Both the position numbers and the translations under genes were made by a program. Below the pieces are notes generated by a model. The model saw only the letters and a program-made list of their open reading frames with translations, was not told the origin of the DNA and ran no database searches. DNA of 64,000 nucleotides from the NCBI RefSeq assembly GCF_010183535.1, contig NC_071332.1:15996001-16060000 (forward strand), written 5' to 3'. Within the stretch, counting starts at the first letter, position 1, and every line of letters starts with the position of its first letter. Source of the stretch: Caenorhabditis remanei. Taxonomy: Eukaryota; Nematoda; Chromadorea; Rhabditida; Rhabditidae. This document shows, piece by piece, positions 2,014 through 20,922 of the stretch.

Positions 2014-2019
2014 ATTGCT
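2014..2019 (+). repeat. Left 6-bp target-site duplication (ATTGCT)
   Basis: ATTGCT stands directly before the AG-starting element end and is repeated directly after its CT end at 12895-12900. Six base pairs is the known target duplication length of Polinton/Maverick integrases. Confidence 0.9.
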
Positions 2020-2144
2020 AGTAGTATGTAGTGTGAGAGGACCCCCCCGTAATCGCGCCCCCCGGCCTATTACACTATAACACCAGAGAACCCCCAGGGC
2101 GGAAAAGAGATAGATGGGGGGGGGGGCTCCCTCGATTTCAAAAC

Positions 2145-2301
2145 TTCGCGCCAATTTCAAAATTCAAAATTCGCGCCAATTTCAAAATTCAAACTTCGCG
2201 CCAATTTCAAAATTGAAACTTCGCGCCAATTTCAAATTTCAAAACTTCGCGCCAAATTTCAAAAGTTCGCGCCAATTTTCAAATTTCAAAATATCGTGGC
2301 A
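2145..2301 (-). promoter_or_regulatory. Array of E2F-like sites in the left TIR
   Basis: Six exact copies of TTCGCGCCAA (reverse TTGGCGCGAA) start at 2145, 2170, 2195, 2220, 2246 and 2266, and a degenerate seventh lies at 2292. Most are spaced 25-26 bp apart and separated by AT-rich TTTCAAAATTC spacers. The core resembles the E2F/DP consensus TTTSSCGC. Whether it binds E2F or the element's own proteins is inferred, not shown. Confidence 0.5.
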
Positions 2302-2473
2302 ATTTCAAAAGCTACACACCAAAGAACAAACAACAAGGAAAAAGGCCCAAATTTCGCAATCATTTCAAAATTAAAGGACCCACCAGAAAACCACCACCGC
2401 GGCCTATTACACTAAGGTGAGGAAAAAACACAACGGCCTATTACACTAGGGCGGCAAAAAACAAGGGAAGCGG

Positions 2474-2484
2474 GGAATCGAACC
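2474..2484 (-). promoter_or_regulatory. tRNA-like Pol III B box in the left TIR
   Basis: On the minus strand this reads GGTTCGATTCC, a match to the tRNA T-loop/B-box consensus GGTTCGANTCC, and it is followed by a T-run. The flanks do not fold into a full tRNA: only three of five T-stem pairs form and no matching acceptor strand is found. The mirror copy is in the right TIR. Confidence 0.4.
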
Positions 2485-2793
2485 CTCGATGTATTGCGCG
2501 AAAACTCAAAACGCAATAAATAAACTATTCGGTTTACAAAAAACTAGTGATCGGTATCGGTATTCGTTGCAAAATTTTTTCAAGTTTTGATATATTTCAA
2601 GCGGAAATTTCCAAAAAATTTCGCCACACTTTGAGAAGGGAGAAAGAGAGAGGGAGAGGGGGAGAAAGAGAGAGAGAGAGAAAGAGAGCCCGGCGCGAGT
2701 CGGAAAATTTCAAAAAAACCGAGAGAGCGGGCGCCACCACCGATCGCCATGAACAAATGCAAAGCAAATGAAAAAAAGCGGCGGCCCAAAAAA

Positions 2794-2927
2794 CGCGCCT
2801 GGACCTCCGCGCCTGGATCTCCGCGCCTGGACCTCCGCGCCTGACCTCCGCGCCTGGATCTCCGCGCCTGGATCTCCGCGCCTGGACCTCCGCGCCTGGA
2901 TCTCCGCGCCTGGATCTCCGCGCCTGG
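2794..2927. repeat. 14-bp minisatellite at the inner end of the left TIR
   Basis: About nine tandem units of CGCGCCTGGATCTC, alternating with an ACCTC variant and one 13-bp unit. The right TIR carries the same unit in about twelve copies. The repeat frames encode Arg/Gly-rich peptides on both strands, which I regard as non-coding shadows. Confidence 0.85.
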
Positions 2928-2971
2928 TGTCCAAAAACAAAACAAGTGGTTATTAATAATTTATTAGAAAT

Positions 2972-4069
2972 TTAAAGCTGTAGCACTGAGGATTCTGGTA
3001 TCCAACTGTCAAACTCTGGGCCATATCCCTCCCACCGCACCAAACACTCTTTTCGGCGCCCACGTGTGCGATGTGCCAACACTTGTTCGATTCGATACGT
3101 TCCTGTCGCGTTGTACGTGCATTTCGTTAGCTCTTGAGAGTAGAAGATTCCCTGTACCGGCTCACCGTTTGTATCCACCACATTGTAGGTGACCGGGCGC
3201 CCTGGCGACACCTCACTAATCACAAACACCTCGGTGGTCCAGCCCTGTTCGTAGCCCTTGTCGAAGAATCCTCGTTTCGAAGCGAGCCGCACGTGGTCAC
3301 CCACCGCAAACTTGATCTTGAACGAGGGTCGTCGAGCGTTCTCGGGAAGCGGAATCGGAAAATCACCGAGGCGCACGTCGACAGGGCGCTTTCCGATACC
3401 GCGATTCACGCTATGGTTGATTGCGTGAACCACGTGCGGCAGCTCATCAATGTATCGATGCCCGTACGCGTGGGTCATGTATTTTGCAAGACGTGTTTTT
3501 AGTGTGCGATTCGCGCGCTCCACCATCCCACACTTTACGTCATTTTTTGGCGAGACGTGTTTAATGTGGTGCTCGTCGAACAGTTTTCGGCACACACTAT
3601 TGTAAAACTCTTTTCCGTCGTCGGTGAAGAGGATCGTGGGGGAGGTGCCCATCTCGGTGAAAATTTGCTCAAAAGCAGCGGCCACCGCGGCGCCACTTTT
3701 CGACGTTAGCGGTTTCACGAACAAAACACGCGTGTAACAGTCGATGACGGTGAGCAGGAAAGTGATCTCGTCGTTTTTCTGCCGATACTTTGCCATGTCA
3801 ACGAGATCGGCTTGCAAGTCAGTGTAGACGCCGGCCGCCTGGGTTCGCGCGCGCGGGAACCGTTTACGATTCGGCCGATGAAGGGTGAAACTTTCGAGAT
3901 CCTCGAGCGCCGACTCGACCTGCTCATAACGGAGGGAGGGGTGCGTCTGGCGCACATGCCGATGAACATTTGCGACAGAGGTGAACGCGCACGGAAGCGC
4001 CGTGTCGGTCCACGCGCGATGAATCTCCTTTTTAATCGAGGACGAGCAGGAGGAGGTTGACGTTGACAT
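2972..4069 (-). CDS. Polinton integrase (retroviral-like rve core plus chromodomain)
   Basis: This 365-aa protein would cut and join the element's ends into target DNA in the host nucleus. The DDE core shows Asp88 (LQADLVDM), Asp150 (FTDDGKEF) and Glu184 (GMVERANRTLK). A C-terminal chromodomain runs from about residue 324 to the end (YRIEQVLAHR...CLVRWEGYG...SWIPESS) and probably directs the enzyme to histone marks. It resembles the family I recall as C. elegans 'transposon-derived protein F54H12.3'. I see no clear N-terminal zinc-binding HHCC domain. The frame is intact, starts ~35 nt after a TATA box (4101-4109) and ends just inside the left TIR near a minus-strand AATAAA at 2960-2965. It is the outermost leftward gene. 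Confidence 0.93.
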   Translation of the reverse strand: MSTSTSSCSSSIKKEIHRAWTDTALPCAFTSVANVHRHVRQTHPSLRYEQVESALEDLESFTLHRPNRKRFPRARTQAAGVYTDLQADLVDMAKYRQKNDEITFLLTVIDCYTRVLFVKPLTSKSGAAVAAAFEQIFTEMGTSPTILFTDDGKEFYNSVCRKLFDEHHIKHVSPKNDVKCGMVERANRTLKTRLAKYMTHAYGHRYIDELPHVVHAINHSVNRGIGKRPVDVRLGDFPIPLPENARRPSFKIKFAVGDHVRLASKRGFFDKGYEQGWTTEVFVISEVSPGRPVTYNVVDTNGEPVQGIFYSQELTKCTYNATGTYRIEQVLAHRTRGRRKECLVRWEGYGPEFDSWIPESSVLQL

Positions 4070-4100
4070 TTTAAAAACAGTTGAGTATTATCACTTGTTT

Positions 4101-4109
4101 ATTTATATA
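4101..4109 (-). promoter_or_regulatory. TATA box for the integrase
   Basis: TATATAAAT reads on the minus strand about 32 nt before the integrase ATG at 4069, giving a very short leader. The same layout recurs before other genes of this element. Confidence 0.55.
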
Positions 4110-4131
4110 CAAAAAACGGAGGACGCGTAAA

Positions 4132-5364
4132 TTAAAACTTCCACAAACGACAATATATTCGGCCGCCGGCTGGTGCTGCGGGGCCCGCGCCTCGAATTGT
4201 TCGTCTCTTTTTTCGTTCCGGCCAAAACTCGTCATCATCGCCCACGTGTGGACGTTTAGTGCCTCGTCTCCAAGACGCGTCTGGTTTGACATCATCTTCA
4301 CTGTCGCTCTCTTCTCTCTTTTCTTTCTTCAAAACCGGATCAATCATTTTATCGTCGTCGTCATCGTCGTCGTCGTCGCTGCCGGGCCACATTTCTTGCA
4401 CGAGTTCAACCTTTGGCTTTACCAGTTTCTCCTCCTCCTCGTCCTCGCGCTTTTTGATTTTCTCTCGTTTCACGGCAGCTGCGAGTTTTCCATTTTTCAA
4501 TTTCGCAACATGCCTCCTACCAGTCCATTCTTTTTTGGGTCTCTCGGTTTGGTAGGGCGCAAAACGGTAGTCTTTCCGGACTCTCCACACGGGCAACTTA
4601 CCGCCGGTTGGGTCGAACAGCTCCACAAACTTTCTTCGCTTTTCAGGAATTTTAGAGTGCAAGATTGGGTGCCGGCGCTTGGGTGGCCTCCTCTGATTTG
4701 TCGGCGGTGGCGGCGGCAGCAACGGCGGTGGTGAGGGTCTCGTCGGCTGAACGATATTCAGTTTTTGCTTCTTCACATTATCCAAAATTTTGCGTTTTCT
4801 CGACGTTCGCACTGGGGGTGATGGCAGTTCAAGAGTCGCGGCTGCAACGCGTCTTTGTTTCATCGTAGTCTCAAAACGGTCGTTATCCTCTACATCATCC
4901 ACATCCACATGTAGACGTTTTCTTGAGAGTCTTCTCGCCGTCGGTTGTTGTTGTTGGTAGGCATTGTCGGCAGACTCTGTTTTTACCCTCTTGAAGACTG
5001 CAGGCAGCTCTTTTAGGTCGTCGTCGTCTTCATCCATCGGCTCTTCCGGCTCCTGCTTTTCAATTTTCGGAACGACGACGGCGAGTTCTCGTTTCAGCGT
5101 AGGCACTGCAACCGCGCCCGCCGACGCCTCATTGTTTGAATTTTGTTGAGAATACGTGTCACGAAGATCGTCAAACACTTCATCAGTCATAATTGGCAGC
5201 TCTCGGTGTTGTCGGATGCGATAGAGCAAATCCTGATAGAAACGACACTTTTCACTGGTTTCAAGAGTGGGATCGTTCAAAATCGTCTCGAGAAAGCGCT
5301 TAGCCGACTCAACAGCCGAACCATCTTCGTAGGGAACAATGTGATACTTTCGGATCAACTTCAT
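4132..5364 (-). CDS. 410-aa charged Polinton protein, function unknown
   Basis: The N-terminal ~70 residues look like a folded helical segment (ILNDPTLETSEKCRFYQDLL). The rest is disordered and strongly charged: Lys/Arg clusters (SRKRKIL, KKRRTIRG) alternate with acidic runs, including nine Asp in a row, and there is a Pro-rich stretch. It has several nuclear-localisation-like clusters. From memory, other animal Polintons have a protein with a similar short N-terminal block at this place, so the N-terminus may be the conserved functional part. A DNA-binding core protein or scaffold is possible but not shown. Its ATG overlaps the stop codon of the upstream 105-aa gene by four nucleotides (ATGA), so both are probably read from one mRNA. 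Confidence 0.75.
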   Translation of the reverse strand: MKLIRKYHIVPYEDGSAVESAKRFLETILNDPTLETSEKCRFYQDLLYRIRQHRELPIMTDEVFDDLRDTYSQQNSNNEASAGAVAVPTLKRELAVVVPKIEKQEPEEPMDEDDDDLKELPAVFKRVKTESADNAYQQQQPTARRLSRKRLHVDVDDVEDNDRFETTMKQRRVAAATLELPSPPVRTSRKRKILDNVKKQKLNIVQPTRPSPPPLLPPPPPTNQRRPPKRRHPILHSKIPEKRRKFVELFDPTGGKLPVWRVRKDYRFAPYQTERPKKEWTGRRHVAKLKNGKLAAAVKREKIKKREDEEEEKLVKPKVELVQEMWPGSDDDDDDDDDKMIDPVLKKEKREESDSEDDVKPDASWRRGTKRPHVGDDDEFWPERKKRRTIRGAGPAAPAGGRIYCRLWKF

Positions 5365-5678
5365 GGCAGGAGCCGAGTCGCGGCAAGAGCTGGGATAATG
5401 AAGGCTGCCAACTGCCGCTTGCTCAGTTTATATAGAATTTTTCGGGCCTTGTCCACGCTGCCGGTTCGAGACAGCGTCTCGAGTTGAGGGTGAATTGGCT
5501 TCAAAAGTTCGAGTTCTGACGCGCTCAGGGGAATATTTTTGGTGTTTAGCAAATTGTACACAATTTCAACCAAAATGTTAATCTGCCGGGCGCTTGCGTG
5601 ACCTATCGCGTTACGATTGTGACGCAAAACCTTGTGGAGAAAATCGCTGTGGATAATGAGACGGGCTGCCATTGCCAT
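5361..5678 (-). CDS. 105-aa conserved Polinton small protein
   Basis: The start at 5678 is chosen because it is the first ATG after a TATA box at 5711-5721; the open frame upstream has no promoter-compatible context. The protein is helical: a segment around residues 20-50 (INILVEIVYNLLNTKNIPLS), a basic middle (KARKILYKLSKR) and a hydrophobic tail (AAFIIPALAATRLLP). I recall similar small proteins beside capsid genes in other animal Polintons, usually with basic residues followed by a hydrophobic end, so a structural or membrane-active virion role is plausible but unproven. The stop codon overlaps the start of the 410-aa gene. Confidence 0.72.
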   Translation of the reverse strand: MAMAARLIIHSDFLHKVLRHNRNAIGHASARQINILVEIVYNLLNTKNIPLSASELELLKPIHPQLETLSRTGSVDKARKILYKLSKRQLAAFIIPALAATRLLP

Positions 5679-5710
5679 GAAAAAATGGCGTGCATACGCA
5701 CTTGCACACC

Positions 5711-5721
5711 TCTTTATATAC
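5711..5721 (-). promoter_or_regulatory. TATA box for the 105-aa/410-aa pair
   Basis: GTATATAAAGA on the minus strand lies 33-43 nt upstream of the ATG at 5678, in the short gap between the ATPase stop (5743) and this gene. Confidence 0.55.
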
Positions 5722-5742
5722 GTTTCTTCGCCGCCGCCGCCG

Positions 5743-6420
5743 CTAGACTGGCACGTATGCGATCGGGTAGGGAGACAAAAAGTTGGAGAGGATCCGCATA
5801 CGCGGCTCACTCAGCGGATCGTTGTTGATTAGTAGGGCTTGATACGGGGCGCTTGCCATGACTTGTTGATAGGCGGCGTACGCGCCGCGCCACTTTTCTC
5901 CAAACTGTTGAACGAGTAGGTTTCGGACTTGCGCGGCGTCGGAGAGATTACGCATAAGTATAATGTATGTGCTGTTGTTTCGGGTGAGTGGTGGGAGCGC
6001 GAACGCCGACTGGACCAAGTTGAATATCGCGCAATTGAGGTGATGGGCGTACACACAAAAGAGGTCGTTGAGCAGGTTCAGCGCTTTTTTGTCACGCGCG
6101 AAAAAGTTCATCAGGTCATCGCACACGACCACGTTGTTCTGATCCTTGTGTTGTTTGAGAAGCTCAACGTCTGGAAGCCCCTCAATGGCGCGCAGTTTAC
6201 TCAAGTGTCTCGGTATGCTCGGTGTGTCACACCCGTAAAACCAGAAAATGTTGTCGATGGGCACGTCGAAGCACGTGTCCAGCGCGCCCAACACGCCCCG
6301 CAGCAGCGTTGTTTTACCAGACTGAGTTGCGCCAATTATGGTTGTCTGTGAGGGGAACCGGAATCGGAAGCCTGCCGGTTTTGTCGCCACATTTGGTTGA
6401 GACGAAACAGACACGGACAT
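5743..6420 (-). CDS. FtsK/HerA-type genome-packaging ATPase
   Basis: This 225-aa P-loop ATPase is expected to pump element DNA into capsids. The Walker A motif is GATQSGKTT (residues 30-38), Walker B is VVVCDD (97-102) with two Asp, and a polar LVQSAF motif follows near residue 137, as in the HerA/FtsK packaging clade. The N-terminal ~28 residues are short and lack extra domains, and length is normal for Polinton ATPases. The start ATG lies inside the end of an overlapping 92-aa frame (6336-6614), so initiation probably depends on the same divergent promoter. Together with the capsid genes it argues that the element can form virions. Confidence 0.9.
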   Translation of the reverse strand: MSVSVSSQPNVATKPAGFRFRFPSQTTIIGATQSGKTTLLRGVLGALDTCFDVPIDNIFWFYGCDTPSIPRHLSKLRAIEGLPDVELLKQHKDQNNVVVCDDLMNFFARDKKALNLLNDLFCVYAHHLNCAIFNLVQSAFALPPLTRNNSTYIILMRNLSDAAQVRNLLVQQFGEKWRGAYAAYQQVMASAPYQALLINNDPLSEPRMRILSNFLSPYPIAYVPV

Positions 6421-6614
6421 AGCGCCAGCACGATCGAGACTGTGAGAAAGAAGTTGAAAGTGATTGGTAGAGCCGCCGATGTGTTGTCGTCGCCGGCTGC
6501 AGATCCTCCTCTATCGAAATGACAAAGCAAGGCGCTAGCGTTATCAAAGACGACGGCGGCGGCGGTGTTGTTGTTGTAGAACGACGACGAACCGTTTAGA
6601 AGCAGCCGGCTCAT
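6336..6614 (-). CDS. Putative 92-aa single-TM protein overlapping the ATPase start
   Basis: The frame starts with the first ATG after a minus-strand TATA box (about 6659-6667) and contains one strong hydrophobic segment (ALPITFNFFLTVSIVLALCPCLF, residues ~47-69) flanked by Ser/Asn-rich and Arg/Gln-rich ends. It overlaps the ATPase by 85 nt in another frame. The promoter position and the hydrophobic segment support it; compositional bias in GC-rich DNA could also produce it. If real it would be a small membrane protein of the element. I do not recognise the family. Confidence 0.4.
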   Translation of the reverse strand: MSRLLLNGSSSFYNNNTAAAVVFDNASALLCHFDRGGSAAGDDNTSAALPITFNFFLTVSIVLALCPCLFRLNQMWRQNRQASDSGSPHRQP

Positions 6615-6725
6615 GCTCTCACCGCCGAATGAGTTCCGGCCGTGCCCGCTAGCGCTCCTTTTATACCCGTTTCTGAGCAGCTAAAGTGTATAAAAGGCGT
6701 GTGCGCGCCTCCCATTGACATCATC
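6615..6725. promoter_or_regulatory. Divergent promoter with two TATA boxes
   Basis: The 111-bp gap between the leftward block and the rightward minor-capsid gene has TATAAAA on the plus strand (6689-6695, ~30 nt before the ATG at 6726) and TATAAAAGG on the minus strand near 6659-6667. It appears to drive both blocks. Confidence 0.6.
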
Positions 6726-9050
6726 ATGTCTGACTTTTATATCACCCTTCCCTCGTCGGTTCCGAATTCACAGTTCCCAAACACATCATCGCGATACGTG
6801 ACCCGACTGCCCGACGTTCTAACACTTGAGCGCGACAAGTACCGCGTCGCCGCCACCGACATTATCTATCCGTACTCGTTTGTGAACGTTGGAAAAGCGC
6901 TAGACTTTTGGATACACTTTCGGCCAGCGGCGTCGTCATCACCACCGCGAATCCCGGTTCACGTTTCGTTTCCGCCGGCGCAATACTCGACTGCCGATCA
7001 AATTGTGAGAACGCTGAACAACGACAACAACGTCGTCGTCGAGGGCACCACGTCGCGTATGAAACGTGCCGCCGTCGATTTTGAAATTTCGAGAGCGAAA
7101 CGCGCAAAGCCAGAAGGAGCGGCGGCGGCGGCGGGCGGCGGCGGTGAGAGCATCGCCGCGCTGAACCGCCAGTTTGAGAGTCTTGGCGGTGGCGGTGGCG
7201 CATCGAGCAAACCCAAACAGAGCGTCAACACGCTGAATCAACAGTTTAATAGTCTTGGAGGCGGTGGCGGTGGCGCATCGAGCAAACCCAAAGAGAGCGT
7301 CAACACGCTGAATCAGCAGTTTAATAGTCTTGGAGGCGGAGGCGGTGGTGGTGGCGGTGGCGGCGCTACCAGCAAACCCAAAGAGGGTGTGGCCGAGTTG
7401 AACGCCCAATTCCAGAGTCTAAGCGGCGGCGGTCCAATACCTCCCGGACAAGGAACGCCAACAGAGACTAAAGATCCACAGAAACCGGCGCCAGAGCAGA
7501 AAGATCAGCAGAAACCTGCGCCACCACCACCACCACCACCGCCAGAGAAGAAGGATCAGAAGAAACCCGCGCCAACAGAGAAGAAGGATCAGAAGAAACC
7601 CGCAGCAGAGAAGAAGGATCAACAGAAACCTGCGCCACCACCAGAGCAGAAGGATCCACAGAAACCTGCGCCAACAGAGAAGAAGGATCAGAAGAAACCT
7701 GCGGCAGAGCAGAAGGATCAAAAGAAACCTACAGAGAAGAAGGATCAGAAGAAACCTGCAGAGAAGGAGGATCAACAGAAACCTGCGCCACCACCAGAGC
7801 AGAAGGATACACAGAAACCTGCGCCAACAGAGAAGAAGGATCAGAAGAAACCTGCGGCAGAGCAGAAGGATCAAAAGAAACCTACAGAGAAGAAGGATCA
7901 GAAGAAACCTGCAGAGAAGGAGGATCAACAGAAACCTGTTGCGGCACCACCACCAGAGCAGAAGGATCCACAGAAACCCGCGCCGCCGCCATCATCAGAG
8001 AAGAAGGATCAGAAGAAACCTGCAGAGAAGAAGGATCAACAGAAACCTGCTGCGGCACCACCGCCAGAGCAGAAGGATCCACAGAAACCTGCGCCAACAG
8101 AGAAGAAGGATCAGAAAACACCGGCGCCGGCGGCGGAAACTAAGAAGGAGGAGACAATCGCCGACTGGAATAGACAGTTTGAAAGTTTAAGCGGCGGCAC
8201 GCCTGCTGGCGGAGAGACGACGCCACCGCCAGAGAGTGTCGCAGACTTGAATCGTCAGTTTACGAGCCTCTCTGGTAAGCCTAAACCAGCACCGCCAGAA
8301 AATCAACCGACACAGCAGCCGGCGCCGCCAATTGTTCAGAAAAAGGGCGACGACGACGACGACGACGACAGTGTGGCGTCGTGGAATCGACAATTCGAGA
8401 GCCTGGGCCCGCGTGGGGAATCGATCGGCGCATGGAACCAACAATTTTTATCGTTGGAGAAGCAGCGCGCCGAGCACGACGAGGCTTGGCCGCTCTACAC
8501 CGCCTCCAGCATGGGTCTTTTGCACAACAAGTCCGCCGACGCGACAACCTATCAACAACAGGTCGAAGAGTTTCGAAAGCTTCGGGCGAAAATTTCGACG
8601 AGCCACACCTCCACTTCTCGCGGGCTTTTACACTTTTCCAACGTTGGAGACCAAATCAAGATCGAGTTCCTCGATGGCGACATTTCGTTTGTTGAATTCG
8701 ATGAGACGTGCGCCTACTTCCTCGGTTTCACGGATCCAATCGTGACAAAGAGCCAGCCGGCACACAAGAAAGTTGACTATTTCGGCAACGTTAGCACACT
8801 CTATCTCTATTGCGATGTGGTGGACCCGATCATTGTGGGAAACACAAAAAGCTCACTTTTATCAGTAATTCCATGCAGAGGCGCGTACGGAGAGATGATA
8901 CATCACACGGTCACACACCCGCGCTATCTACCCCTCATGAACTCTACAATCGATAGTATTCGTGTCGAACTACTAACAGAGTTTGGCGAACCAATCGACT
9001 TCAACTGGGGCAGTACAATTATAGTGTTACATTTTAAGAGAATCGAATGA
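6726..9050 (+). CDS. Minor-capsid-like Polinton protein with a large repeat insertion
   Basis: The ATG at 6726 is preferred over 6642 because it follows the TATA box. Residues ~1-95 (SDFYITLPSSV, YVTRLPDVLTL, IYPYSF) and ~629-774 (LYLYCDVVDPIIVG, LLSVIPCRG, IIVLHFKR) look like the two halves of the minor capsid/penton-like protein found with Polinton capsid genes. They are separated by ~500 residues of low complexity. Residues 141-245 and 470-580 hold eight copies of a S(V/I)xxxNxQFxSL peptide. Between them is a Lys/Gln/Asp/Pro spacer (KKDQKKPA-type) and poly-Gly and poly-Pro tracts. The family's capsid role is known only by association, and the repeats are an unusual addition. The gene ends 11 nt before the convergent protease stop. 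Confidence 0.82.
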   Translation: MSDFYITLPSSVPNSQFPNTSSRYVTRLPDVLTLERDKYRVAATDIIYPYSFVNVGKALDFWIHFRPAASSSPPRIPVHVSFPPAQYSTADQIVRTLNNDNNVVVEGTTSRMKRAAVDFEISRAKRAKPEGAAAAAGGGGESIAALNRQFESLGGGGGASSKPKQSVNTLNQQFNSLGGGGGGASSKPKESVNTLNQQFNSLGGGGGGGGGGGATSKPKEGVAELNAQFQSLSGGGPIPPGQGTPTETKDPQKPAPEQKDQQKPAPPPPPPPPEKKDQKKPAPTEKKDQKKPAAEKKDQQKPAPPPEQKDPQKPAPTEKKDQKKPAAEQKDQKKPTEKKDQKKPAEKEDQQKPAPPPEQKDTQKPAPTEKKDQKKPAAEQKDQKKPTEKKDQKKPAEKEDQQKPVAAPPPEQKDPQKPAPPPSSEKKDQKKPAEKKDQQKPAAAPPPEQKDPQKPAPTEKKDQKTPAPAAETKKEETIADWNRQFESLSGGTPAGGETTPPPESVADLNRQFTSLSGKPKPAPPENQPTQQPAPPIVQKKGDDDDDDDSVASWNRQFESLGPRGESIGAWNQQFLSLEKQRAEHDEAWPLYTASSMGLLHNKSADATTYQQQVEEFRKLRAKISTSHTSTSRGLLHFSNVGDQIKIEFLDGDISFVEFDETCAYFLGFTDPIVTKSQPAHKKVDYFGNVSTLYLYCDVVDPIIVGNTKSSLLSVIPCRGAYGEMIHHTVTHPRYLPLMNSTIDSIRVELLTEFGEPIDFNWGSTIIVLHFKRIE
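7447..8140 (+). repeat. Pro/Lys/Gln coding minisatellite inside the minor-capsid gene
   Basis: Tandem imperfect copies of an AGAAGGATCAGAAGAAACCT-type unit encode KKDQKKPA/EQKDPQKPA repeats. A longer duplicated block of about 150 bp is visible when 7655-7775 is compared with 7800-7925. Copy number is expected to vary between element copies. Confidence 0.85.
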
Positions 9051-9051
9051 T

Positions 9052-9118
9052 TTATTGCTGTCTAAGGGGGCGGCGAAGAGACGTATCCATGATTTTGTTT
9101 CAAGTAGTTTGCAATAAA
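9052..9118. terminator. Interlocked poly(A) signals of convergent genes
   Basis: The plus-strand AATAAA at 9113-9118 (for the minor-capsid gene) lies inside the protease coding region. The minus-strand AATAAA at 9057-9052 (for the protease) lies just past the minor-capsid stop, so the two transcripts should overlap at their 3' ends. Confidence 0.5.
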
Positions 9119-9535
9119 AACATCGTCATTTGTAATGCTGTCAAAAACCGTGCAGATTGTTTCAAACGGGATTCCGCGTGCTTGCATCGATTGAACAAAA
9201 ACACAATATCCACCACACGTCAGCGCGCTGTTTTTTTGTTGCTTGCTCTTGTTGATTTTCACAACGGGAAACTTTGACAAGTACCTCTCAATGTGGGCGT
9301 TTGGTTTCTCGGCCAACGAACAAAAATAGTGACAAGTTTGGCGATCGTTGTCGACAAAAATGCTCTGCCAGTGCCTGCCTGGTTGGTCTCGTCGATCCGT
9401 GTTGACAACAAGACCAAATCTCCTTTTCCGGATTCGTCCCAATCTCTCGAGTTCGTCAGCGCCGAATACCCCAATGAAGGTTCGTTTGGCTTGGCTGTCT
9501 GCCAAAAGGAGTCGATCAATCTCGTCGGAAAACAT
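9062..9535 (-). CDS. Adenain-like cysteine protease (virion maturation)
   Basis: This 157-aa protein matches the adenovirus-type C5 cysteine protease carried by Polintons, which cleaves capsid precursors during maturation. His55 lies in PGRHWQSIFVD and the nucleophile candidate is Cys107 in SALTCGGYCVFVQ. The His-to-Cys order and spacing fit the family. The position where homologues usually carry the acidic catalytic residue is a Cys here (Cys72 in HYFCSL), so the triad may be non-standard or use another residue such as Asp62 or Asp64. A minus-strand TATAAAAGAG (9607-9598) lies ~63 nt upstream. It is the only leftward gene among the rightward structural genes. Confidence 0.85.
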   Translation of the reverse strand: MFSDEIDRLLLADSQAKRTFIGVFGADELERLGRIRKRRFGLVVNTDRRDQPGRHWQSIFVDNDRQTCHYFCSLAEKPNAHIERYLSKFPVVKINKSKQQKNSALTCGGYCVFVQSMQARGIPFETICTVFDSITNDDVFIANYLKQNHGYVSSPPP

Positions 9536-9609
9536 GTATAAATAGGCCGACGCGCATCAACCGGGTCTCTCACTTACACACGCGCGCGCACACTCGTCTC
9601 TCTTTTATA
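9536..9609. promoter_or_regulatory. Overlapping divergent promoter between protease and pVI-like gene
   Basis: The plus TATA (TATAAATAGG, 9537-9546) abuts the protease start codon, and the minus TATA (TATAAAAGAG, 9607-9598) abuts the rightward ATG at 9610. Each promoter therefore starts inside the other's leader, which would favour competition or switching between protease and structural expression. A CACACGCGCGCGCACAC tract lies between. Confidence 0.5.
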
Positions 9610-10014
9610 ATGGTGCCGACCCCTGTGGACTTGTCAAAGATTGACTACAAAAAGTTGCTGCGACGGAGCGTTCCTGGTAATGGCCCCTTCATGGGAATGC
9701 GCTATCAGCGTGGCGGAAACCAGCGTGGTGGAGGGCTGGGTGGAATAATCGGCGCGGTTGCCGGTCTACTTCCAAAGTTGCTGAGTTCGGTTGCCGGCCA
9801 ACAACTGGTGAGCGCAGGCAAAGAGTTGGCGTCGGAACTGGCTCAAGGTCAGAGCCTGAAAGCCAGTCTCAAGGGTGTGGCCCAGAAGAAGATGCGTGAG
9901 TTTGCCGGAAACGGACGCCGCCGTGGAGCGCTTCAAAAAAGGATAAAAGGAGGAGTGGTGACCGTTCTGAAGCCTCACTTGGTCTCAAAAACACGCCGAG
10001 ACAACTTTCTCTAA
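9610..10014 (+). CDS. Glycine-rich pVI/pX-like minor virion protein
   Basis: This 134-aa basic protein has a Gly-rich, hydrophobic and probably amphipathic segment at residues ~36-66 (RGGGLGGIIGAVAGLLPKLL) followed by an Ala/Ser/Lys helix and a basic C-terminus. Small proteins of this build sit directly upstream of the major capsid gene in adenoviruses and Polintons and act as membrane-lytic or core cement proteins after cleavage. The repeated RGG/GG steps around residues 35-43 could be protease sites, which is inference. It starts after a TATA box at 9537 and lies only 6 nt upstream of the capsid gene's first ATG, so both may share an mRNA. Confidence 0.7.
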   Translation: MVPTPVDLSKIDYKKLLRRSVPGNGPFMGMRYQRGGNQRGGGLGGIIGAVAGLLPKLLSSVAGQQLVSAGKELASELAQGQSLKASLKGVAQKKMREFAGNGRRRGALQKRIKGGVVTVLKPHLVSKTRRDNFL

Positions 10015-10020
10015 CGCGCC

Positions 10021-11355
10021 ATGCTTTGCCGTATGGACCCAAAATCCCATGACGTCATCGTCGACGAATTAGATTTTTCAACCATGCCCGGGACGCAGTC
10101 GGGCGTCCTCAATTCTCGCTGGACACCAATCGGTCTCAAAAACAACTTTCAAGAGGCCGGCCCGTTCGAGTTCATCCTCACAAACAACTCGCGCTCGTAT
10201 CTGAATCTGAAACGCACCTACCTCGTGTTCACTTTTGGGATTACCGACGCCGCCGGAAACTATGTGACAATGACCCCCGAGGTGGCGAACTCGCAGGTAT
10301 ACGCGCCAATCAACAATATTGCCCATTCGATTGTGAGAAATTTCTCGCTTCACATCAACTCACAGCTCGCCTTTCACAACTCTTCAAACTACGCCTACAA
10401 GAGCTACTTTGAACACGTCCTAATGTACGGCCAAGAGATTAAAGACTCCACACTCACGGCCGCCGGCTTCTATCACGACACCGCAATTGGGGACGTGTCG
10501 AGTCTGGGATTTCAGAAGCGATGTCTGTCGGTACATGGTCAGGGCGATGTTCAAGTAGCAGCCAACATTTCAATCGATTTGATGAATCAGCCACGCGTTT
10601 TGTTAAACTCTTGCAATGTGAAGCTGACTGTCTATCCGAACAATAGCAAGTTCCTCATTGAGGCTTTCAATCGCGACCCGGACACTGAGTTTCGCTTCAA
10701 AATCAAAGACGTCTATGCGCTCGTCAACGAATTCGACCTGGCCGACGGACTATCAAATGCTCTCGAGGCCGCGGTCATTGAGCACAAGCTGATTCAGTAT
10801 CCAATGATTTCGTCACAGGTGCGTAGTTTCTACATTGAGCCAAACCGCCTGGACGCGCCCGCAAACACGCTGTTCACGAGTAAAATGCCTCGTCGAATTT
10901 TCTTGGGCCTCGTTGACGCAGAAGCGTATAACGGGTCGTACGAGAAGTCACCGTTCAACTTTCAACCTCATGGAATAACCGACATTCACATTGATTATTG
11001 TGGAATGTCGGTTCCGGGACGCCCCTTCTCGCTAGATTTTAAGAAAAACAAGTTTATCGAGGCCTACATTCAGCTGCAAGAGACTCTGGGACACACGAGA
11101 AACAACTTTAGCTGCAACTCTATTAGCACAAAAATGTTCAAAGAAGACGGCTACACCATATTCGGTTTCGAGCTGAGCCCCGTCGCACAGGACAACTCGC
11201 TTTTTGAGCTGGTGCGCCAGACCAATATCAGCGTTCGTCTCAACTTTCGCGATAAAACTCCAGAAGGCGGCCTCTACTGTGTAGTCTACGCGGAGTTTGA
11301 TCAGATTTTTTCTCTGGACGCTCTTCGTAATCCTATTATCGATAGTATTGTCTGA
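10021..11355 (+). CDS. Major capsid protein candidate (F54H12.2-like)
   Basis: The product is 444 aa from the first ATG; a second in-frame ATG at 10033 is equally possible. The N-terminal block (ELDFSTMPGTQSGVL...WTPIGL) and the region around residues 100-160 (INNIAHSIVRNFSLHIN, YAYKSYFEHVLMYG, GFYHDT) fit a family I know from the C. elegans protein F54H12.2 and from Polinton/adintovirus-like elements of many animals. It is rich in beta-strand-like segments with no transmembrane helix or signal peptide. Its place after the pVI-like gene and beside protease and ATPase genes supports a double jelly-roll capsid subunit; the fold itself is inferred. The frame is intact and long for DNA in a nematode intron-rich setting. 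Confidence 0.8.
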   Translation: MLCRMDPKSHDVIVDELDFSTMPGTQSGVLNSRWTPIGLKNNFQEAGPFEFILTNNSRSYLNLKRTYLVFTFGITDAAGNYVTMTPEVANSQVYAPINNIAHSIVRNFSLHINSQLAFHNSSNYAYKSYFEHVLMYGQEIKDSTLTAAGFYHDTAIGDVSSLGFQKRCLSVHGQGDVQVAANISIDLMNQPRVLLNSCNVKLTVYPNNSKFLIEAFNRDPDTEFRFKIKDVYALVNEFDLADGLSNALEAAVIEHKLIQYPMISSQVRSFYIEPNRLDAPANTLFTSKMPRRIFLGLVDAEAYNGSYEKSPFNFQPHGITDIHIDYCGMSVPGRPFSLDFKKNKFIEAYIQLQETLGHTRNNFSCNSISTKMFKEDGYTIFGFELSPVAQDNSLFELVRQTNISVRLNFRDKTPEGGLYCVVYAEFDQIFSLDALRNPIIDSIV

Positions 11356-11440
11356 TTTCCGGGCGTGTGGTCGTGAGAATTTTGTCGAACGCGGTCATTT
11401 GTTGTTGTTGCACCAGAGCGAGTTGGTGAGCTCTCACGCG

Positions 11441-11842
11441 ATGGACCCTCCATCCTCCTCTTCCCTCTCCTATTACCCGTCCAATTTTCAAGAAGATGGT
11501 ACATTTGAAGGAAATTTGGAATTTGCTGATCGATATCTCATACCACAAGGTAAGTTTCGTAATAATATCCAATTTGTAGTTGTTTTTGATGATTCAGAAC
11601 CCGTTAAACCCACCAAGCCAAAAACTGGGAAACAACCGTCTTTGCTCGTTGCAAAACACAAGGCAAAGCAGGACAGACCTTCAAGTGCGGCAGACAAGGC
11701 TCGTTTTCGAGAGTCACGGACATTTGTTCACGTACCAATTTGTGAATCTTGTCGTGATGCATCTACACTGGAAAAGTCAGTGCTGAGGATTCCGTTGTGT
11801 GATTCGTGTCGGCTGAGGTTGTTATCAAAATGTTCCAAATGA
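11441..11842 (+). CDS. Paired-CxxC (zinc-ribbon-like) Polinton protein
   Basis: The product is 133 aa if started at ATG 11441; the open frame also extends upstream over the capsid gene end without a better start. The C-terminus has two CxxC pairs (CESC and CDSC, 19 residues apart), the layout of a zinc ribbon or treble-clef-like fold, with basic residues around them. A 48-nt stretch (11550-11597) has perfect worm splice signals (GTAAGT...TTCAG) and is a multiple of three, so two proteins with or without 16 residues could be made. A poly(A) signal lies at 11874-11879. I do not recognise the family; a DNA- or RNA-binding regulator is a guess. Confidence 0.6.
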   Translation: MDPPSSSSLSYYPSNFQEDGTFEGNLEFADRYLIPQGKFRNNIQFVVVFDDSEPVKPTKPKTGKQPSLLVAKHKAKQDRPSSAADKARFRESRTFVHVPICESCRDASTLEKSVLRIPLCDSCRLRLLSKCSK

Positions 11843-11950
11843 GGTTGTTTTTGAATGTATTTCTTTCTTTCTTCAATAAAATTTTTATAATGAAAAGCGT
11901 GTGTGTGTGTGTACAATACGCTTTTTTCCAAAACTAAATCCGCAGAGCTC

Positions 11951-12122
11951 AGGCGCGGAGATCCAGGCGCGGAGGTCCAGGCGCGGAGATCCAGGCGCGG
12001 AGATCCAGGCGCGGAGGTCAGGCGCGGAGGTCCAGGCGCGGAGATCCAGGCGCGGAGATCCAGGCGCGGAGGTCAGGCGCGGAGGTCCAGGCGCGGAGGT
12101 CCAGGCGCGGAGGCCAGGCGCG
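11951..12122. repeat. 14-bp minisatellite at the inner end of the right TIR
   Basis: About twelve units of GAGATCCAGGCGCG and its GGTC variants, inverted relative to the left TIR. Copy number differs from the left arm, so the two TIRs are not fully homogenised here. Confidence 0.85.
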
Positions 12123-12431
12123 TTTTTTGGGCCGCCGCTTTTTTTCATTTGCTTTGCATTTGTTCATGGCGATCGGTGGTGGCGCCCGCTCTCTCGGTTT
12201 TTTTGAAATTTTCCGACTCGCGCCGGGCTCTCTTTCTCTCTCTCTCTCTTTCTCCCCCTCTCCCTCTCTCTTTCTCCCTTCTCAAAGTGTGGCGAAATTT
12301 TTTGGAAATTTCCGCTTGAAATATATCAAAACTTGAAAAAATTTTGCAACGAATACCGATACCGATCACTAGTTTTTTGTAAACCGAATAGTTTATTTAT
12401 TGCGTTTTGAGTTTTCGCGCAATACATCGAG

Positions 12432-12442
12432 GGTTCGATTCC
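12432..12442 (+). promoter_or_regulatory. tRNA-like Pol III B box in the right TIR
   Basis: GGTTCGATTCC within GGGTTCGATTCCCCGC, followed by a T6 run at 12455-12460 that could end Pol III transcription. There is no recognisable A box or complete tRNA fold upstream. Confidence 0.4.
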
Positions 12443-12613
12443 CCGCTTCCCTTGTTTTTTGCCGCCCTAGTGTAATAGGCCGTTGTGTTTTTTCCTCACC
12501 TTAGTGTAATAGGCCGCGGTGGTGGTTTTCTGGTGGGTCCTTTAATTTTGAAATGATTGCGAAATTTGGGCCTTTTTCCTTGTTGTTTGTTCTTTGGTGT
12601 GTAGCTTTTGAAA

Positions 12614-12771
12614 TTGGCACGATATTTTGAAATTTGAAAATTGGCGCGAACTTTTGAAATTTGGCGCGAAGTTTTGAAATTTGAAATTGGCGCGAAGTTT
12701 CAATTTTGAAATTGGCGCGAAGTTTGAATTTTGAAATTGGCGCGAATTTTGAATTTTGAAATTGGCGCGAA
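12614..12771 (+). promoter_or_regulatory. Array of E2F-like sites in the right TIR
   Basis: TTGGCGCGAA occurs at 12641, 12661, 12687, 12712, 12737 and 12762, with a degenerate copy at 12614, mirroring the left array in number and spacing. Confidence 0.5.
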
Positions 12772-12894
12772 GTTTTGAAATCGAGGGAGCCCCCCCCCAT
12801 CTATCTCTTTTCCGCCCTGGGGGTTCTCTGGTGTTATAGTGTAATAGGCCGGGGGGCGCGATTACGGGGGGGTCCTCTCACACTACATACTACT

Positions 12895-12900
12895 ATTGCT
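12895..12900 (+). repeat. Right 6-bp target-site duplication (ATTGCT)
   Basis: It is identical to 2014-2019 and followed directly by the continuation of the receptor exon (TATCCTTTG...). Confidence 0.9.
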
Positions 12901-14866: not shown

Positions 14867-15693
14867 ATGGTTCAAACTCTAGAAGAATATCATCTCAAGA
14901 ACTATTCGCAGTGTAATGTATCATACAGTTTTCTAGCTTCCTGGCAAGGATTGGCATATCCAAGTCATGTTATTCAGTCGGTCTCGTTTGCCCTTGAAGT
15001 TCTAACGTTTTTTCTGATTATTAGAAAAACTCCAGGTCATATGAAGACCTTCAGGTACCAATTGTTGTTTAGCTACTTTTGGTAAGTAGTTGTTGTTTAC
15101 ATGTTTCAGTAAAACAGAATAAATCGTCTCTTCTATAAATGATATTTTTCCAGGTGCACATTGGTCAACTTACTTTCTTGTTCTCTTGCAACGCCCTATG
15201 TTTATCTCAAGTTTGCTGGCGGTTTTGGAGTTGGACTGCTCAGCTGGTTAGGTTTACCTGCTATGTATCAAGCTGTCACTGGCTTATTTGTCTTATCATG
15301 TCAGACAACATATATAAAAAAAGACCGTATAAAAATGTTCAGGTGCTACTAGTTCATATATATTTTTATTCGAAAGTCGTAGCAGTTCTCTCCAAGAAAA
15401 CAAGTTTAGAATCACTCGGAAGTGTTTTCGAGTGGTCTATCATTCTTCGATTTTCTTCATCAATAGTTCTATATTTCTCGTATTTTTCAAATTGCCAGCA
15501 GATCAAGAAACTGTTAAACTTAACGTGTTAGAGCTGGACCCCTGCCCAACATCAGAATTTTTTCAGTCCGATGTCTTCATAGTGTATACGGATCAGAATC
15601 TTATCAGCTTCTATGTTTGGTTTCTCGGACCTTTTATCTTATTAAATGCAACTGGTCATGTTATATTTCATGCTGCCTGTACTATATACTATC
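14867..15693 (+). pseudogene. Srh chemoreceptor gene broken by an LTR retroelement fragment
   Basis: Exon 1 (14867-15081) starts with an Srh-type N-terminus (SFLASWQGL, IIRKTPGHM) and splices at 15154 to CTLVNLLSCSLATPY. Downstream, in changing frames, come further Srh blocks, the last (DQNLISFYVWFLGPFILLN) nearly identical to the gene at the left edge. The homology stops at 15693, where an LTR begins. The frame change between ~15350 and 15432 suggests additional damage or a missed intron. It is a paralogue of 1-541 and 18053-18260. Confidence 0.68.
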
Positions 15694-15955
15694 TGTTGTA
15701 TCTCGTGCTGATAGAGAACAATGTATATTAATCACTCGTTTATTAGTGATTCAAAATAATAGAATGAGGGGGCAAAGGGTAACAATCTATCCGTAACGGT
15801 CACGTTCCGGAAGCAGGTATATAACTACAACTAAATCAAGAACGAGAGGAAAAGGATGACATTTCCTCTTCGCGGGCAACCGGGGGAGTACGAGGGAAAG
15901 CGGGTAGATCAAAAATAATATAAATCTTTGTGACTAAATAAACAACGTCACAACA
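15694..15955 (-). mobile_element. LTR of a gypsy-like retrotransposon
   Basis: On the minus strand the 262-bp block starts TGTTGTGACG and ends ATACAACA, the TG...CA termini of an LTR. It is preceded by a purine tract (TAGGGAGG, 15963-15956) that fits a polypurine primer site, so it is a 3' LTR. No partner LTR is found in the window. Confidence 0.6.
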
Positions 15956-15984: not shown

Positions 15985-16188
15985 TTAATCAGGTAACAAC
16001 AATGATGGTATCAGGATAAGTAGAACAATAGGAATAATCACAAATGAGAATTTAGATGTGAGATGATGGATCGTACTTGACGACGTTCTTCCTGACACGG
16101 GTTGTCCTTCTTGGTTGAACTGGAGACGGAGCAAGTCGTTGTCCTTGAACTGCTGTAGTTGTTGACTGACTTGACGACGGTAAGACAT
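15985..16188 (-). pseudogene. 3' ORF tail of the LTR element, one TM segment
   Basis: A 67-residue open stretch directly upstream of the polypurine tract and LTR ends with a hydrophobic anchor (FVIIPIVLLILIPSLLL) and a two-residue tail. The place and the anchor fit the end of the last gene (env-like or other 3' ORF) of the retroelement. Its 5' part is lost where integrase sequence in the opposite direction begins at about 16187. Confidence 0.45.
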
Positions 16189-16885
16189 GTTCAGTCAACG
16201 CGGTTACCCTGAAACTCTGGTTTCTGATAATGGTACACAGTTCGTGTCAAAGGAATTTGCTACGATGTGCCAGGATGCAGGAATTGAGCATGTTCGCTCA
16301 CCAGCGGTTCATCCTCAATCGAACGGTCAAGCAGAAAGATTTGTTGACACATTGAAGAGAGGATTGGAAAAGTTAAAAGGGGAGGGAAGTGTGAACACTG
16401 AGATCTTATCTCAATTTCTGTTACACTATCGCTCAACACCGTCAAATGCTCTTGGAGGTTTGACACCAGCGGAGGTTCATCTCGGAAGGCGTCTGAGAAC
16501 AAGGTTATCGTTGATGATGCCGCAGTTGAACAAAACTGTAGATTCAGAGCAAGTGGCTATGAAAGAACAGTTTGATAAGCATCACGGAGTGAAAGCCAGA
16601 AGTTACCGTAAAGGTGATTCTGTATTTGTGAAGGTATTCGAGAAGAATACATGGTCGTGGAAACCTGGAAAGGTTAACCAGCGACAAGGTCGAGTCGTCT
16701 ACGTCATCGGTCTGAATGACGGACGAGAGCGTGTTGTACATGCCAATCAAATGAAGATGCGATTGGAGGAGTCAACACAGGAGCAAAGCAAGGAGCATGA
16801 GTGGGCTACCACTATGTTCGATGTGTTCGAGTTGCCAACAGTTTGGTCGACAAGGAAGTCTACCGATGAAGCGAAGAGGGATATG
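16187..16885 (+). pseudogene. Gypsy-type retrotransposon integrase, C-terminal fragment
   Basis: The frame holds the second and third catalytic residues of the integrase core (Asp in LVSDNGTQF, Glu in QSNGQAERF) and a C-terminal DNA-binding region (YRKGDSVFVKV...WKPGKV). The first catalytic Asp and all upstream pol domains are absent. It runs opposite to the adjoining 3' ORF tail and LTR (15694-16188), so the element has been rearranged as well as truncated. The true end of homology is uncertain; duplicated srh-flank DNA takes over near 16885. Confidence 0.75.
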
Positions 16886-17690
16886 GCGGCTTTTTCGGCA
16901 TTGCCGAACTTTCGAAATAGTTTTTCTTGAACAGTATTTTGATCGGTTATAGTCCCAACTCCTCTAATTGTAAAGCCAAAAATTAATTAGGCTTTTCCAG
17001 CGAGATAATAGGATTTTAGTCAGAAAAAACTGGAAGTTAGATAACAAAAACGCAGTTACATGTTTAACAGTATCAAGATTCAAGAAACACCTTTAGCATT
17101 ATTTGAATTAATTTATCAAAAAAAAGTTCCAATTAAATTCTTAGCCAAAATAGTTAATATTTTTAATGACTCAAATTGACAAACGGCCGTGAGTTGTTTC
17201 GATTCGCTCGAAAATTTGGGAGCACTTGGACAGAAGTGTTCAAATCTGAGAAATGCATGTATATTTTAGAGCTACTCAACTCTTTCTCACTTTTCGAATA
17301 ACATCCAAAAAACATCTGCACCATTGCTTTCCGATAAGAATCGTAAACTGTTAGAATAGTTAAACTGACAGCAATGCAGTGAAGCTCTACAATTAATACA
17401 GCCAAATTCATAAAATCCTGACACGCACAATTAATTGAATATATCACAGCTACTATGACAGCTGGCATCGCAACAAAAATCAATGGAATTCCAGTCTGAA
17501 AAACTGCTCCAATAAAAAACAGTCGCTGTAGACGTTGAGTTTGTGCAGAAACAAGATTAGAAGGGACAATGAATAGATAGTATATAGTACAGGCAGCATG
17601 AAATAAAACATGACCAGTAGCATTTAATAAAATGAATAAAAATGATAAAATACTGTTCAAGAAAAACTATTTCGAAAATTCATGTGCCGT
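16886..17690. repeat. Inverted copy of the srh 3' end, bounded by inverted repeats
   Basis: The segment is the reverse complement of 1-820 (srh 3' end plus downstream flank). It is bounded by inverted copies of a ~35-bp sequence containing CAAGAAAAACTATTTCGAAA (16908-16945 and 17645-17680). The breakpoint within the srh part is at about 17645. Confidence 0.6.
17163..17645 (-). pseudogene. Srh chemoreceptor 3' fragment, inverted
   Basis: It encodes the last two or three helices and the tail of an Srh receptor, nearly identical to 14-541, including the ...RNNSRPFVNLSH end. The first helices are missing because homology begins abruptly at ILLNATGHV. It lies tail-to-tail with the retroelement fragment and cannot make a receptor by itself. 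Confidence 0.7.
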
Positions 17691-19290: not shown

Positions 19291-20430
19291 TCAAAATCGC
19301 AATTCATTTTGCATCAAATAACTCTCTGGTATCGAAGAAAACGGAATTCTTGCAAAAGCAATTTTTGTGCTGAATCCCCTTGATGGAGTCATCGACAACG
19401 CAGAATTCGCATTGCGATTCCAAAAATACCATTCTTTTTGATTTTTTCCCCAAAGTCCAGTTTCAATATACGGCTCTCCAAATTGTTCGAACATTTCATC
19501 ATCATCACCCTCCTCATAGTAAAGTGTGAATCTCTTGAAATGTGGGGAATTCAACAATGCCTGAAAATGTTTCAAATGAAAATTAGGTCCTTAGGAAAAC
19601 ACTTACCACTTTCAACATCTCTAAATCTTCTGGTCTTAACGTCTTCACTGTGGTTTCAGCTCTAGAAAAATGTGTGAATTTCTTAAGCGTTTCAGCAGGA
19701 ATATAGAAATTACTGATCTCAATCTCCTCTAAGTTCCACCAGAATCCCATATCTGTCAGATCGTCAATGTCCAATTCTTTTTTCACACCATAATGGTAGA
19801 TCAACAAACTCTTTATAGCCTTTTGATCAATGTACGGTAGAATTGACATCAATTCTTTTCCTCATAAATTGTCTGAGAGAATTTGACGACTTGAAGTGGA
19901 TGGTCTCGCCGAATCAACATATTTTTTAAGTTCTCCAGAAATTGATTGAGAATTTCTTCTTGATTTTCTAATGAAACCTTCCCAATGAAAAACTTGGCTT
20001 CCAACTTCAAATCACTCAAAGGTGATTTTTGAAAGCTCAACAATATTGACAAATCCCCGCAGGCGGCATCCAGGAAGTTGCCATTTTTCAAAGTTTTTGA
20101 AAGCAAATCAATTTTTCCTCCTTTTCGATATACAAGCTTGCATTCACCATTTTCAGAAAAGTATCGATAGTTGAGTATTTTGGTCCATACTGATATACTA
20201 TTAGTTTGAAAATCTATACAAATTTCAGGAATCGCAAAATCTGGTTTACTGGAGTCGATGAAGTCACGGAGACTGCGAGCCACTTTTCGGAGGGATAGAC
20301 TGAAATAAATATTAAGAAAATTATTCTATCAAAAATCTCACATAGAAATGAAATCCAATTTGCTCAGGATCTCCTTCATAGCAATATCAGGCATATCTGT
20401 TAGTTTAATTTCCGATTCCGAGGACGACAT
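19291..20430 (-). pseudogene. F-box/FTH gene B with a frameshift
   Basis: Exon 1 (20430-20342) encodes a short F-box (LTDMPDIAMKEILSKLDFIS). Exon 2 (20299-19607) begins LSLRKVARSLRDFID and continues as FTH domain. Exon 3 (19560-19291) gives the C-terminal part. All splice sites are canonical. In exon 2 the frame ends at 19849 (IYEEKN, stop) while the conserved continuation MSILPYID lies one frame over, so one nucleotide is missing relative to its paralogues. This makes it a recent pseudogene unless the base is a sequence error. Domain function by family: substrate adaptor of an SCF ubiquitin ligase. Confidence 0.7.
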
Positions 20431-20599
20431 TTTGGAAGCAAAATAATTGTAGAAATGTGGAGAATTCGATTGAATGTACATAGAGTGAAAAGTTGACAAA
20501 CTGATAAGAATTTGAGTCACATGTGACAGAAAACTATATTTATTCAAAGATTAAAACATATTAGAGGATACAGCGTCGCCTTTGGTTCCTTATCAACAG

Positions 20600-20880: not shown

Positions 20881-20922
20881 CTGCAATAATTTATTTATTC
20901 ATTAACACAAAATGAAGATTTC

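What the first reader, a model, noticed from the sequence alone, without database searches (positions are those of the whole stretch)
2020..12894. Compact Polinton with a full virion module but no DNA polymerase B
The element has exact ends, a target duplication, integrase, packaging ATPase, protease, two capsid-type genes and several small proteins, all with open frames, yet no frame long enough for the ~1000-residue protein-primed polymerase that defines classical Polintons. It may borrow replication from the host or from full-length relatives, or replicate by a different route. This would be an 'integrase plus capsid' lineage of virus-like transposons in nematodes.
Basis: partly seen in the sequence, partly recalled or inferred. 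Interest (0 to 1): 0.9.

Follow-up and report, generated by a model that had tools for sequence, protein, structure and literature searches.

The report
Polinton lineage without its own polymerase
A nematode chromosome carries a recently inserted virus-like transposon that keeps capsid, packaging and integration genes but has lost its own DNA polymerase, while relatives in the same genome keep theirs, so it probably copies itself with a borrowed enzyme.

Summary
Window 2020-12894 is a 10,875-bp element with ~0.9-kb terminal inverted repeats (TIRs), AG...CT ends and a 6-bp target duplication. It encodes integrase, packaging ATPase, protease, double-jelly-roll capsid and penton proteins. No PolB, primase or helicase was found. 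The host is Caenorhabditis remanei.

Relatives in the same genome carry PolB: 17 of 23 related integrase loci have a PolB exon 0.6-1.1 kb beyond the integrase 3' end. It is a multi-exon gene, so "no long frame" alone was no test. The 410-aa product is no polymerase; its conserved part also occurs at the PolB+ loci.

The loss is not private to this copy. An independent insertion on another chromosome, with its own target duplication, shares the TIR-integrase junction and lacks PolB. Between the two, nine genes show 134 synonymous against 47 nonsynonymous changes (pN/pS 0.105), so the genes have been under selection.

Both elements keep terminal AGTAGT, as in one PolB+ subfamily. Best reading: a helper-dependent satellite Polinton, replicated in trans by a relative's PolB; that step is inferred.

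Side finding: 19 inverted PolB pairs without these virion genes; the one read inside is a near-perfect palindrome.

The parts
2014..2019 (.). target-site duplication, left copy (ATTGCT)
   Evidence: read directly
2020..2927 (+). left terminal inverted repeat with inner tandem repeats; outermost bases AGTAGTATGT
2972..4069 (-). DDE integrase (rve core plus C-terminal chromodomain); candidate catalytic D88/D91, D150/D151, E184
   Evidence: Pfam rve 2e-9 and Chromo 5e-7; PDB retroviral integrases and chromodomains; residue positions (triad assignment by motif, recalled)
4132..5364 (-). 410-aa charged protein with conserved N-terminus, no known domain; not a polymerase
   Evidence: no Pfam hit passing cut-off; N-terminus found at 26 places, 17 of them at the PolB+ loci
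5361..5678 (-). 105-aa conserved protein
   Evidence: 60-72% identity in nine relatives
5743..6420 (-). genome-packaging ATPase, A32-like; Walker A GATQSGKT, Walker B VVVCDD
   Evidence: Pfam Pox_A32 5.5e-5, 23.2 bits against a cut-off of 22.8
6336..6614 (-). 92-aa frame overlapping the ATPase start, with a hydrophobic stretch; possibly the stub of a 250-267-aa frame that some relatives carry here
   Evidence: position only; start not conserved in the sibling
6726..9050 (+). penton (minor capsid) protein, 774 aa, with a long repeat-rich insertion between conserved N- and C-terminal parts
9062..9535 (-). adenovirus-type cysteine protease; candidate H55 and C107/C111
   Evidence: Pfam Peptidase_C5 0.005, below cut-off; viral S273R protease 1.3e-4
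9610..10014 (+). 134-aa basic protein, conserved in relatives
   Evidence: 55-72% identity in nine relatives
10021..11355 (+). major capsid protein, double jelly roll
   Evidence: model pLDDT 83; Foldseek to PBCV-1, SGIV, Sputnik, mavirus capsids, E 5e-15 to 3e-13
11441..11842 (+). 133-aa protein, partly conserved in three relatives (39-48%)
11950..12894 (-). right terminal inverted repeat
12895..12900 (.). target-site duplication, right copy (ATTGCT)

Best explanation
It is a derived, helper-dependent (satellite) Polinton. A Polinton ancestor of this Caenorhabditis family lost the whole PolB gene that lay between its left TIR and the integrase 3' end, but kept its ends, integrase, packaging ATPase, protease, capsid and penton. 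The PolB-less form then went on moving as its own lineage. Its DNA is copied when a protein-primed PolB made by a relative acts in trans on its ends; the copy is packaged or reintegrated with its own proteins. Shown here: anatomy, absence of PolB, two independent insertions with the same junction, purifying selection on the genes, PolB+ relatives in the same genome, and a terminal AGTAGT also found in one PolB+ subfamily. Inferred: trans-replication, virion formation, and loss before the two copies split.
For: PolB absent from window and sibling by direct search with ten PolB pieces (three of them also). PolB present next to 17 of 23 related integrase loci, and Pfam DNA_pol_B_2 confirms the exon at 3 of 3 loci tested. 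Sibling at C2:17820870-17834195 has its own duplication TGCATT and the same TIR-integrase junction. Window against sibling: 134 synonymous and 47 nonsynonymous differences over nine genes, pN/pS 0.105, binomial p 9e-48; capsid omega 0.026, 46 of 53 differences in third positions. Window insertion recent: TIR arms differ at 3 of 904 bases. Of seven PolB+ right ends looked at, five show AGTAGT at or within 3 bases of the boundary, as both PolB-less elements do; four of the five are near copies of one another.
Against: The nearest PolB+ capsid in this assembly is 85% identical, so the helper is unidentified and may not recognise these ends; whether any PolB copy here is intact was not tested. A 481-base TIR query found none of the PolB+ copies, so beyond about 10 bases the TIRs do not match. 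The AGTAGT evidence is thin: four ends are one subfamily, C43's end was located with the motif itself, and C4:19.3M and C1:13.16M show GTAGTGTT with the outer base unsettled. Differences between the two PolB-less copies are patchy, so recombination could have spread the loss and imported constraint from PolB+ ancestors. The sibling's two TIR arms differ by 29 of 610 and 25 of 341 bases, not explained. No transcripts, particles or extrachromosomal DNA were seen.
Confidence: 0.57

Rival explanations
1. Dead-end deletion derivatives: PolB was lost recently, the two copies are the last products of a PolB+ source not in this assembly, and the constraint seen was accumulated in PolB+ ancestors and spread by recombination.
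For: Divergence between the copies is a mosaic of near-identical and diverged tracts, and four other integrase loci without PolB look degraded, interrupted or rearranged. No close PolB+ sister is available to time the loss.
Against: Shared junction in two insertions with different target duplications; no stop inside any of the ten genes of the sibling, although its integrase lacks the window's start codon and opens further upstream.
Confidence: 0.22
2. Replication by host enzymes only: the element moves as a simple integrase-driven transposon and needs no PolB at all.
For: The integrase frame is open and keeps candidate catalytic residues, and both copies have target duplications.
Against: A retroviral-type integrase needs a linear extrachromosomal donor and no excision activity is known for it (recalled). 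The doubled trinucleotide at the ends is as at protein-primed origins (recalled).
Confidence: 0.13
3. Host co-option: the virion genes are kept by the nematode for its own use.
For: Strong constraint on capsid and integrase.
Against: Recent insertion, full TIRs and duplication, and constraint over virion genes and the integrase together fit a mobile element better.
Confidence: 0.05

Closest known systems
Polintons/Mavericks of Caenorhabditis (for example Polinton-1_CB)
   Same: 6-bp duplication, AG...CT TIRs, retroviral-type integrase, A32-type ATPase, adenovirus-type protease, double-jelly-roll capsid, penton; direct relatives with PolB in the same genome
   Different: no PolB; 10.9 kb instead of the 15-25 kb given as typical in PMC6431247 (passages read). 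Polinton-1_CB itself was not compared
Tlr1 element and polinton-like viruses without pPolB
   Same: virion module without classical pPolB; Tlr1 also has the integrase (PMC11071308, passages)
   Different: those encode other replication proteins (helicases, PolA- or primase-helicase fusions); none was detected here
Virophages (Sputnik, mavirus)
   Same: capsid and penton folds; dependence on another agent
   Different: virophages depend on giant viruses and carry their own replication gene (PMC11071308, passages); here the proposed helper is a sister Polinton

Membership tests
Polinton/Maverick (autonomous) | 6-bp target-site duplication and AG...CT terminal inverted repeats | tested here: met
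Polinton/Maverick (autonomous) | retroviral-type integrase | tested here: met
Polinton/Maverick (autonomous) | protein-primed DNA polymerase B | tested here: not met
   the element is therefore filed as a PolB-less derivative, not as an autonomous Polinton
Polinton/Maverick (autonomous) | packaging ATPase | tested here: met
   Pox_A32 just above cut-off, Walker motifs; no useful PDB match
Polinton/Maverick (autonomous) | adenovirus-type maturation protease | tested here: met
   S273R match 1.3e-4; the Pfam C5 match is below cut-off
Polinton/Maverick (autonomous) | double-jelly-roll capsid and jelly-roll penton | tested here: met
   capsid; penton on a homologue with a low-confidence model, pLDDT 60
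Polinton/Maverick (autonomous) | production of virions | not testable with these tools
   sequence only
Tlr1-like element | superfamily 1 helicase protein in place of pPolB | tested here: not met
   no helicase domain in the products scanned
Polinton-like virus (PLV) | minimal module lacking the maturation protease, usually no retroviral-type integrase (PMC4642659, passages) | tested here: not met
   protease and integrase are present
Polinton-like virus (PLV) | PLV-type major capsid protein | not tested
   capsid type was not compared with PLV capsids

The most novel reading that the evidence does not exclude
In this species the Polinton genome has split into two complementary mobile parts: PolB-less elements that carry virion and integrase genes (window and sibling), and PolB-only palindromic elements built from two mirrored left ends (19 inverted PolB pairs, without the capsid, ATPase or integrase of this family in the listed matches; one read inside). 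They would complement each other, as in a multipartite or helper-satellite virus.
Probability: 0.15. Interest if true: 0.85.

Novelty: new variant of a known kind. Interest (0 to 1): 0.62.

Why it matters
Polintons are defined as self-synthesizing elements. A lineage that discarded the polymerase, kept the virion and integration genes under selection and inserted at two sites would be a satellite at the level of an animal endogenous virus. It makes a question testable: whether Polinton PolB works in trans and on which ends. The PolB palindromes suggest that Polinton genomes yield defective-type derivatives as linear protein-primed viruses do.

Tried and rejected
Rejected: (1) A diverged polymerase in the 410-aa product. 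No domain passed cut-off, and its conserved N-terminus is found at 26 places of the genome (window and sibling counted), 17 of them at the 17 PolB+ loci. (2) Another replicase: no primase or helicase in Pfam or NCBIfam scans; PHROGs gave transposase, terminase-like and unknown-function hits only. (3) An assembly gap or collapse: two complete insertions with different duplications lack PolB. (4) C43's right end shared widely: a 525-base query from it found nine other places, all with its innermost 89 bases or fewer and none with the end.

Led nowhere: phage records, no match to the capsid. PDB sequence searches with capsid and ATPase gave nothing useful. Terminal pattern: 8 matches against 3 for the backward control (four at the ends of the two PolB-less elements, one solo end, two at a ~300-bp mini palindrome, one chance-like site); a stricter form gave 5 against 0. 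Genomes of other nematodes could not be searched. The other-assembly copies (CRE_ proteins) could not be tested for PolB. The two papers on nematode Polintons that I recall (Jeong et al. 2023, Widen et al. 2023) were not read; a look-up by DOI for the first failed. Hence no claim that PolB-less Polintons are absent from print: searches showed none in titles and abstract starts, in a library in which those papers did not turn up.

Limits of the counts: the integrase table holds 23 loci of 45% identity or more; a 24th, a 169-residue fragment at C6:10050988 with no PolB near it, was left out, so the strict count is 17 of 24. Three of the 17 have one stop inside the integrase. The PolB table used 65 of the 147 rows, typed by hand from the upper part of the list; the lower rows and at least one upper row (C6:3612083) were left out as fragments or second exons. 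The script looked only for pairs in the order plus then minus; the nine matches left over are single. One search scored 116 of 354 candidates and the list is cut, so absence of PolB at the four other loci (C2:0.83M, C4:9.10M, C3:16.05M, C1:12.72M) is soft; 2.5 kb beside the C3 one was read and holds no PolB. The 92-aa frame was left out of the selection count; it gave omega 0.37.
Full report
What is there. The window lies at C5:15996001-16060000 of a 130.47-Mb genome. The contig lengths of GCK72 proteins of Caenorhabditis remanei equal those of C1, C4, C5 and C6, so the host is C. remanei (strain PX506, recalled). The element spans 2020-12894, 10,875 bp, with ATTGCT on both sides. Its TIRs differ at 3 of 904 aligned bases, so the insertion is young. 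GC content per kb is 0.46-0.56 inside; in the flanks up to 20 kb it is 0.32-0.37, apart from 0.44 at 16-17 kb.

No replicase. None of the ten genes, nor eight further ATG frames of 80 aa or more, shows a polymerase, primase or helicase. PolB pieces from three relatives, ten queries in all, find nothing in the first 14 kb of the window (best E 0.20). The space between genes and TIRs is 44 and 107 bp.

Relatives. Capsid search in the same genome gives 91 matches: 20 loci, the window included, that cover 379 or more of the 444 residues at 62-100% identity, further fragments of that kind, and about 50 rows of a second clade at 24-39%. Ten copies of the first kind, the window's own not counted, were read on both sides. 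The genes detected lie in the same order. Five of the ten show PolB exons in the stretch read; in four the stretch stops before or inside the integrase, and there the genome search places PolB beyond it; one, the sibling, has none. The exons carry Pfam DNA_pol_B_2, E 1.4e-23 to 3.2e-21, at 3 of 3 loci tested. Upstream exons with exonuclease-like and further N-terminal parts were read in two copies (motif names recalled). Genome-wide, 17 of 23 integrase loci have the PolB exon 585-1113 bp away (one more fragment was not entered). The six without are the window, its sibling and four loci that look rearranged, interrupted or fragmentary.

The sibling. At C2:17820870-17834195 an element with ends AGTAGTATGTATG and duplication TGCATT lacks PolB too. 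Its integrase-TIR junction aligns with the window's, apart from a few changes and one 1-base gap. Its left TIR holds an insert of about 2.4 kb bounded by a 46-bp inverted repeat. Nine genes compared with the window: 134 synonymous and 47 nonsynonymous differences on 1856 and 6226 sites, pN/pS 0.105. The capsid has omega 0.026 at dS 0.18 and the integrase 0.08 at dS 0.16, whereas the 410-aa, 105-aa, ATPase and 133-aa genes are almost identical. Differences are clustered; in the capsid the longest clean gap was reached in 17 of 20,000 random placings. Recombination or gene conversion among copies is therefore likely, and it blurs the timing of the loss. In the capsid the differing sites match three PolB+ relatives about equally from either side (20/21, 20/18, 17/24), so neither copy is the odd one out.

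Ends. Right ends of PolB+ copies were placed where near-identical copies stop matching, to within a few bases. Four related copies begin AGTAGTGTT or AGTAGTATT. A further pair shows GTAGTGTT with the outer base unsettled. C43 begins AGTAGTATGTG, but that end was found with the motif itself. Both PolB-less elements begin AGTAGTATGTA. A doubled trinucleotide at the end is typical of protein-primed origins (recalled, adenovirus and phi29 work). Taken strictly, the shared hexamer rests on one PolB+ subfamily.

Other assembly. Proteins with CRE_ names match at 100% (capsid), 98% (penton, on two contigs) and 100% and 89% (410-aa protein), so the family is also in another C. remanei assembly. Whether PolB is near them was not testable.

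PolB-only palindromes. Of the 47 entered PolB matches not near an integrase, 38 form 19 inverted pairs 0.7-10.4 kb apart, PolB pointing inward as the script required. By eye, no capsid, integrase or ATPase match lies inside them; those lists are lower bounds. For one (C2:1.27M), 2801 bp of one arm recur at 100% in the other and the arms come within 624 bp; its first 0.9 kb matches the PolB-integrase border of relatives and includes the last part of the integrase. This looks like two mirrored left ends, a kind of rearrangement known for defective linear virus genomes (recalled). Whether they make active PolB is open.

Mechanism. The most likely account is a satellite Polinton: own integrase and virion proteins, replication by a relative's PolB in trans. 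Rivals are dead deletion products, host-only replication and host use. Literature seen: passages of PMC11071308, PMC6431247, PMC8097293, PMC3671162 and PMC4642659. PMC4642659 suggests that some integrated PLVs without an integrase could use one from resident Polintons in trans, the mirror image of the case here. None of the passages shown describes an integrase-plus-virion Polinton without PolB.

Noticed in passing
genome G000, 19 places, e.g. C2:1269925-1278299, C4:5192344-5202540, C5:16140829-16153215: PolB exons in inverted pairs without listed matches to the capsid, ATPase or integrase of this family; the one read inside (L045) is a near-perfect palindrome of mirrored Polinton left ends.
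   Followed up: partly
G000, about 50 rows, e.g. C4:24596293-24597492: A second, distant Polinton clade (capsid 24-39% identical) in many copies, one of them (C159:9722-10897) next to a first-clade copy; its PolB content was not examined.
   Followed up: no
C5:21297299-21297598 and C4:22281799-22281991: A ~300-bp palindromic mini element and a solo end that match the TIR of the PolB-less elements.
   Followed up: no
L037 and L039 (C159 and C5:18.9M copies), between the 105-aa gene and the ATPase: An extra ~280-aa frame in two PolB+ copies that looks like a 3'-5' exonuclease domain by eye (recalled motif).
   Followed up: no
relatives C4:19.3M, C1:13.16M, C6:21.2M, C6:16.5M, C159, C5:18.9M, upstream of the ATPase: A 250-267-aa frame with N-terminal and C-terminal hydrophobic stretches (possible envelope protein) where the window has only a 92-aa frame.
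   Followed up: no
C2:4.84M copy, L024: Inverted PolB remnants on the right side of the element, beyond the capsid gene, as if the TIR once included PolB.
   Followed up: no
window 16184-16930 +: Open frame resembling a retroelement integrase, between 7TM-receptor-like frames at 15333-15731 and 17163-17666 that repeat part of the frame at 14-541 (names by eye).
   Followed up: no
window 19849-31433: A cluster of related frames, several sharing LRKVCRDLRxFIDD-type stretches, probably an F-box-type nematode gene family (name recalled).
   Followed up: no
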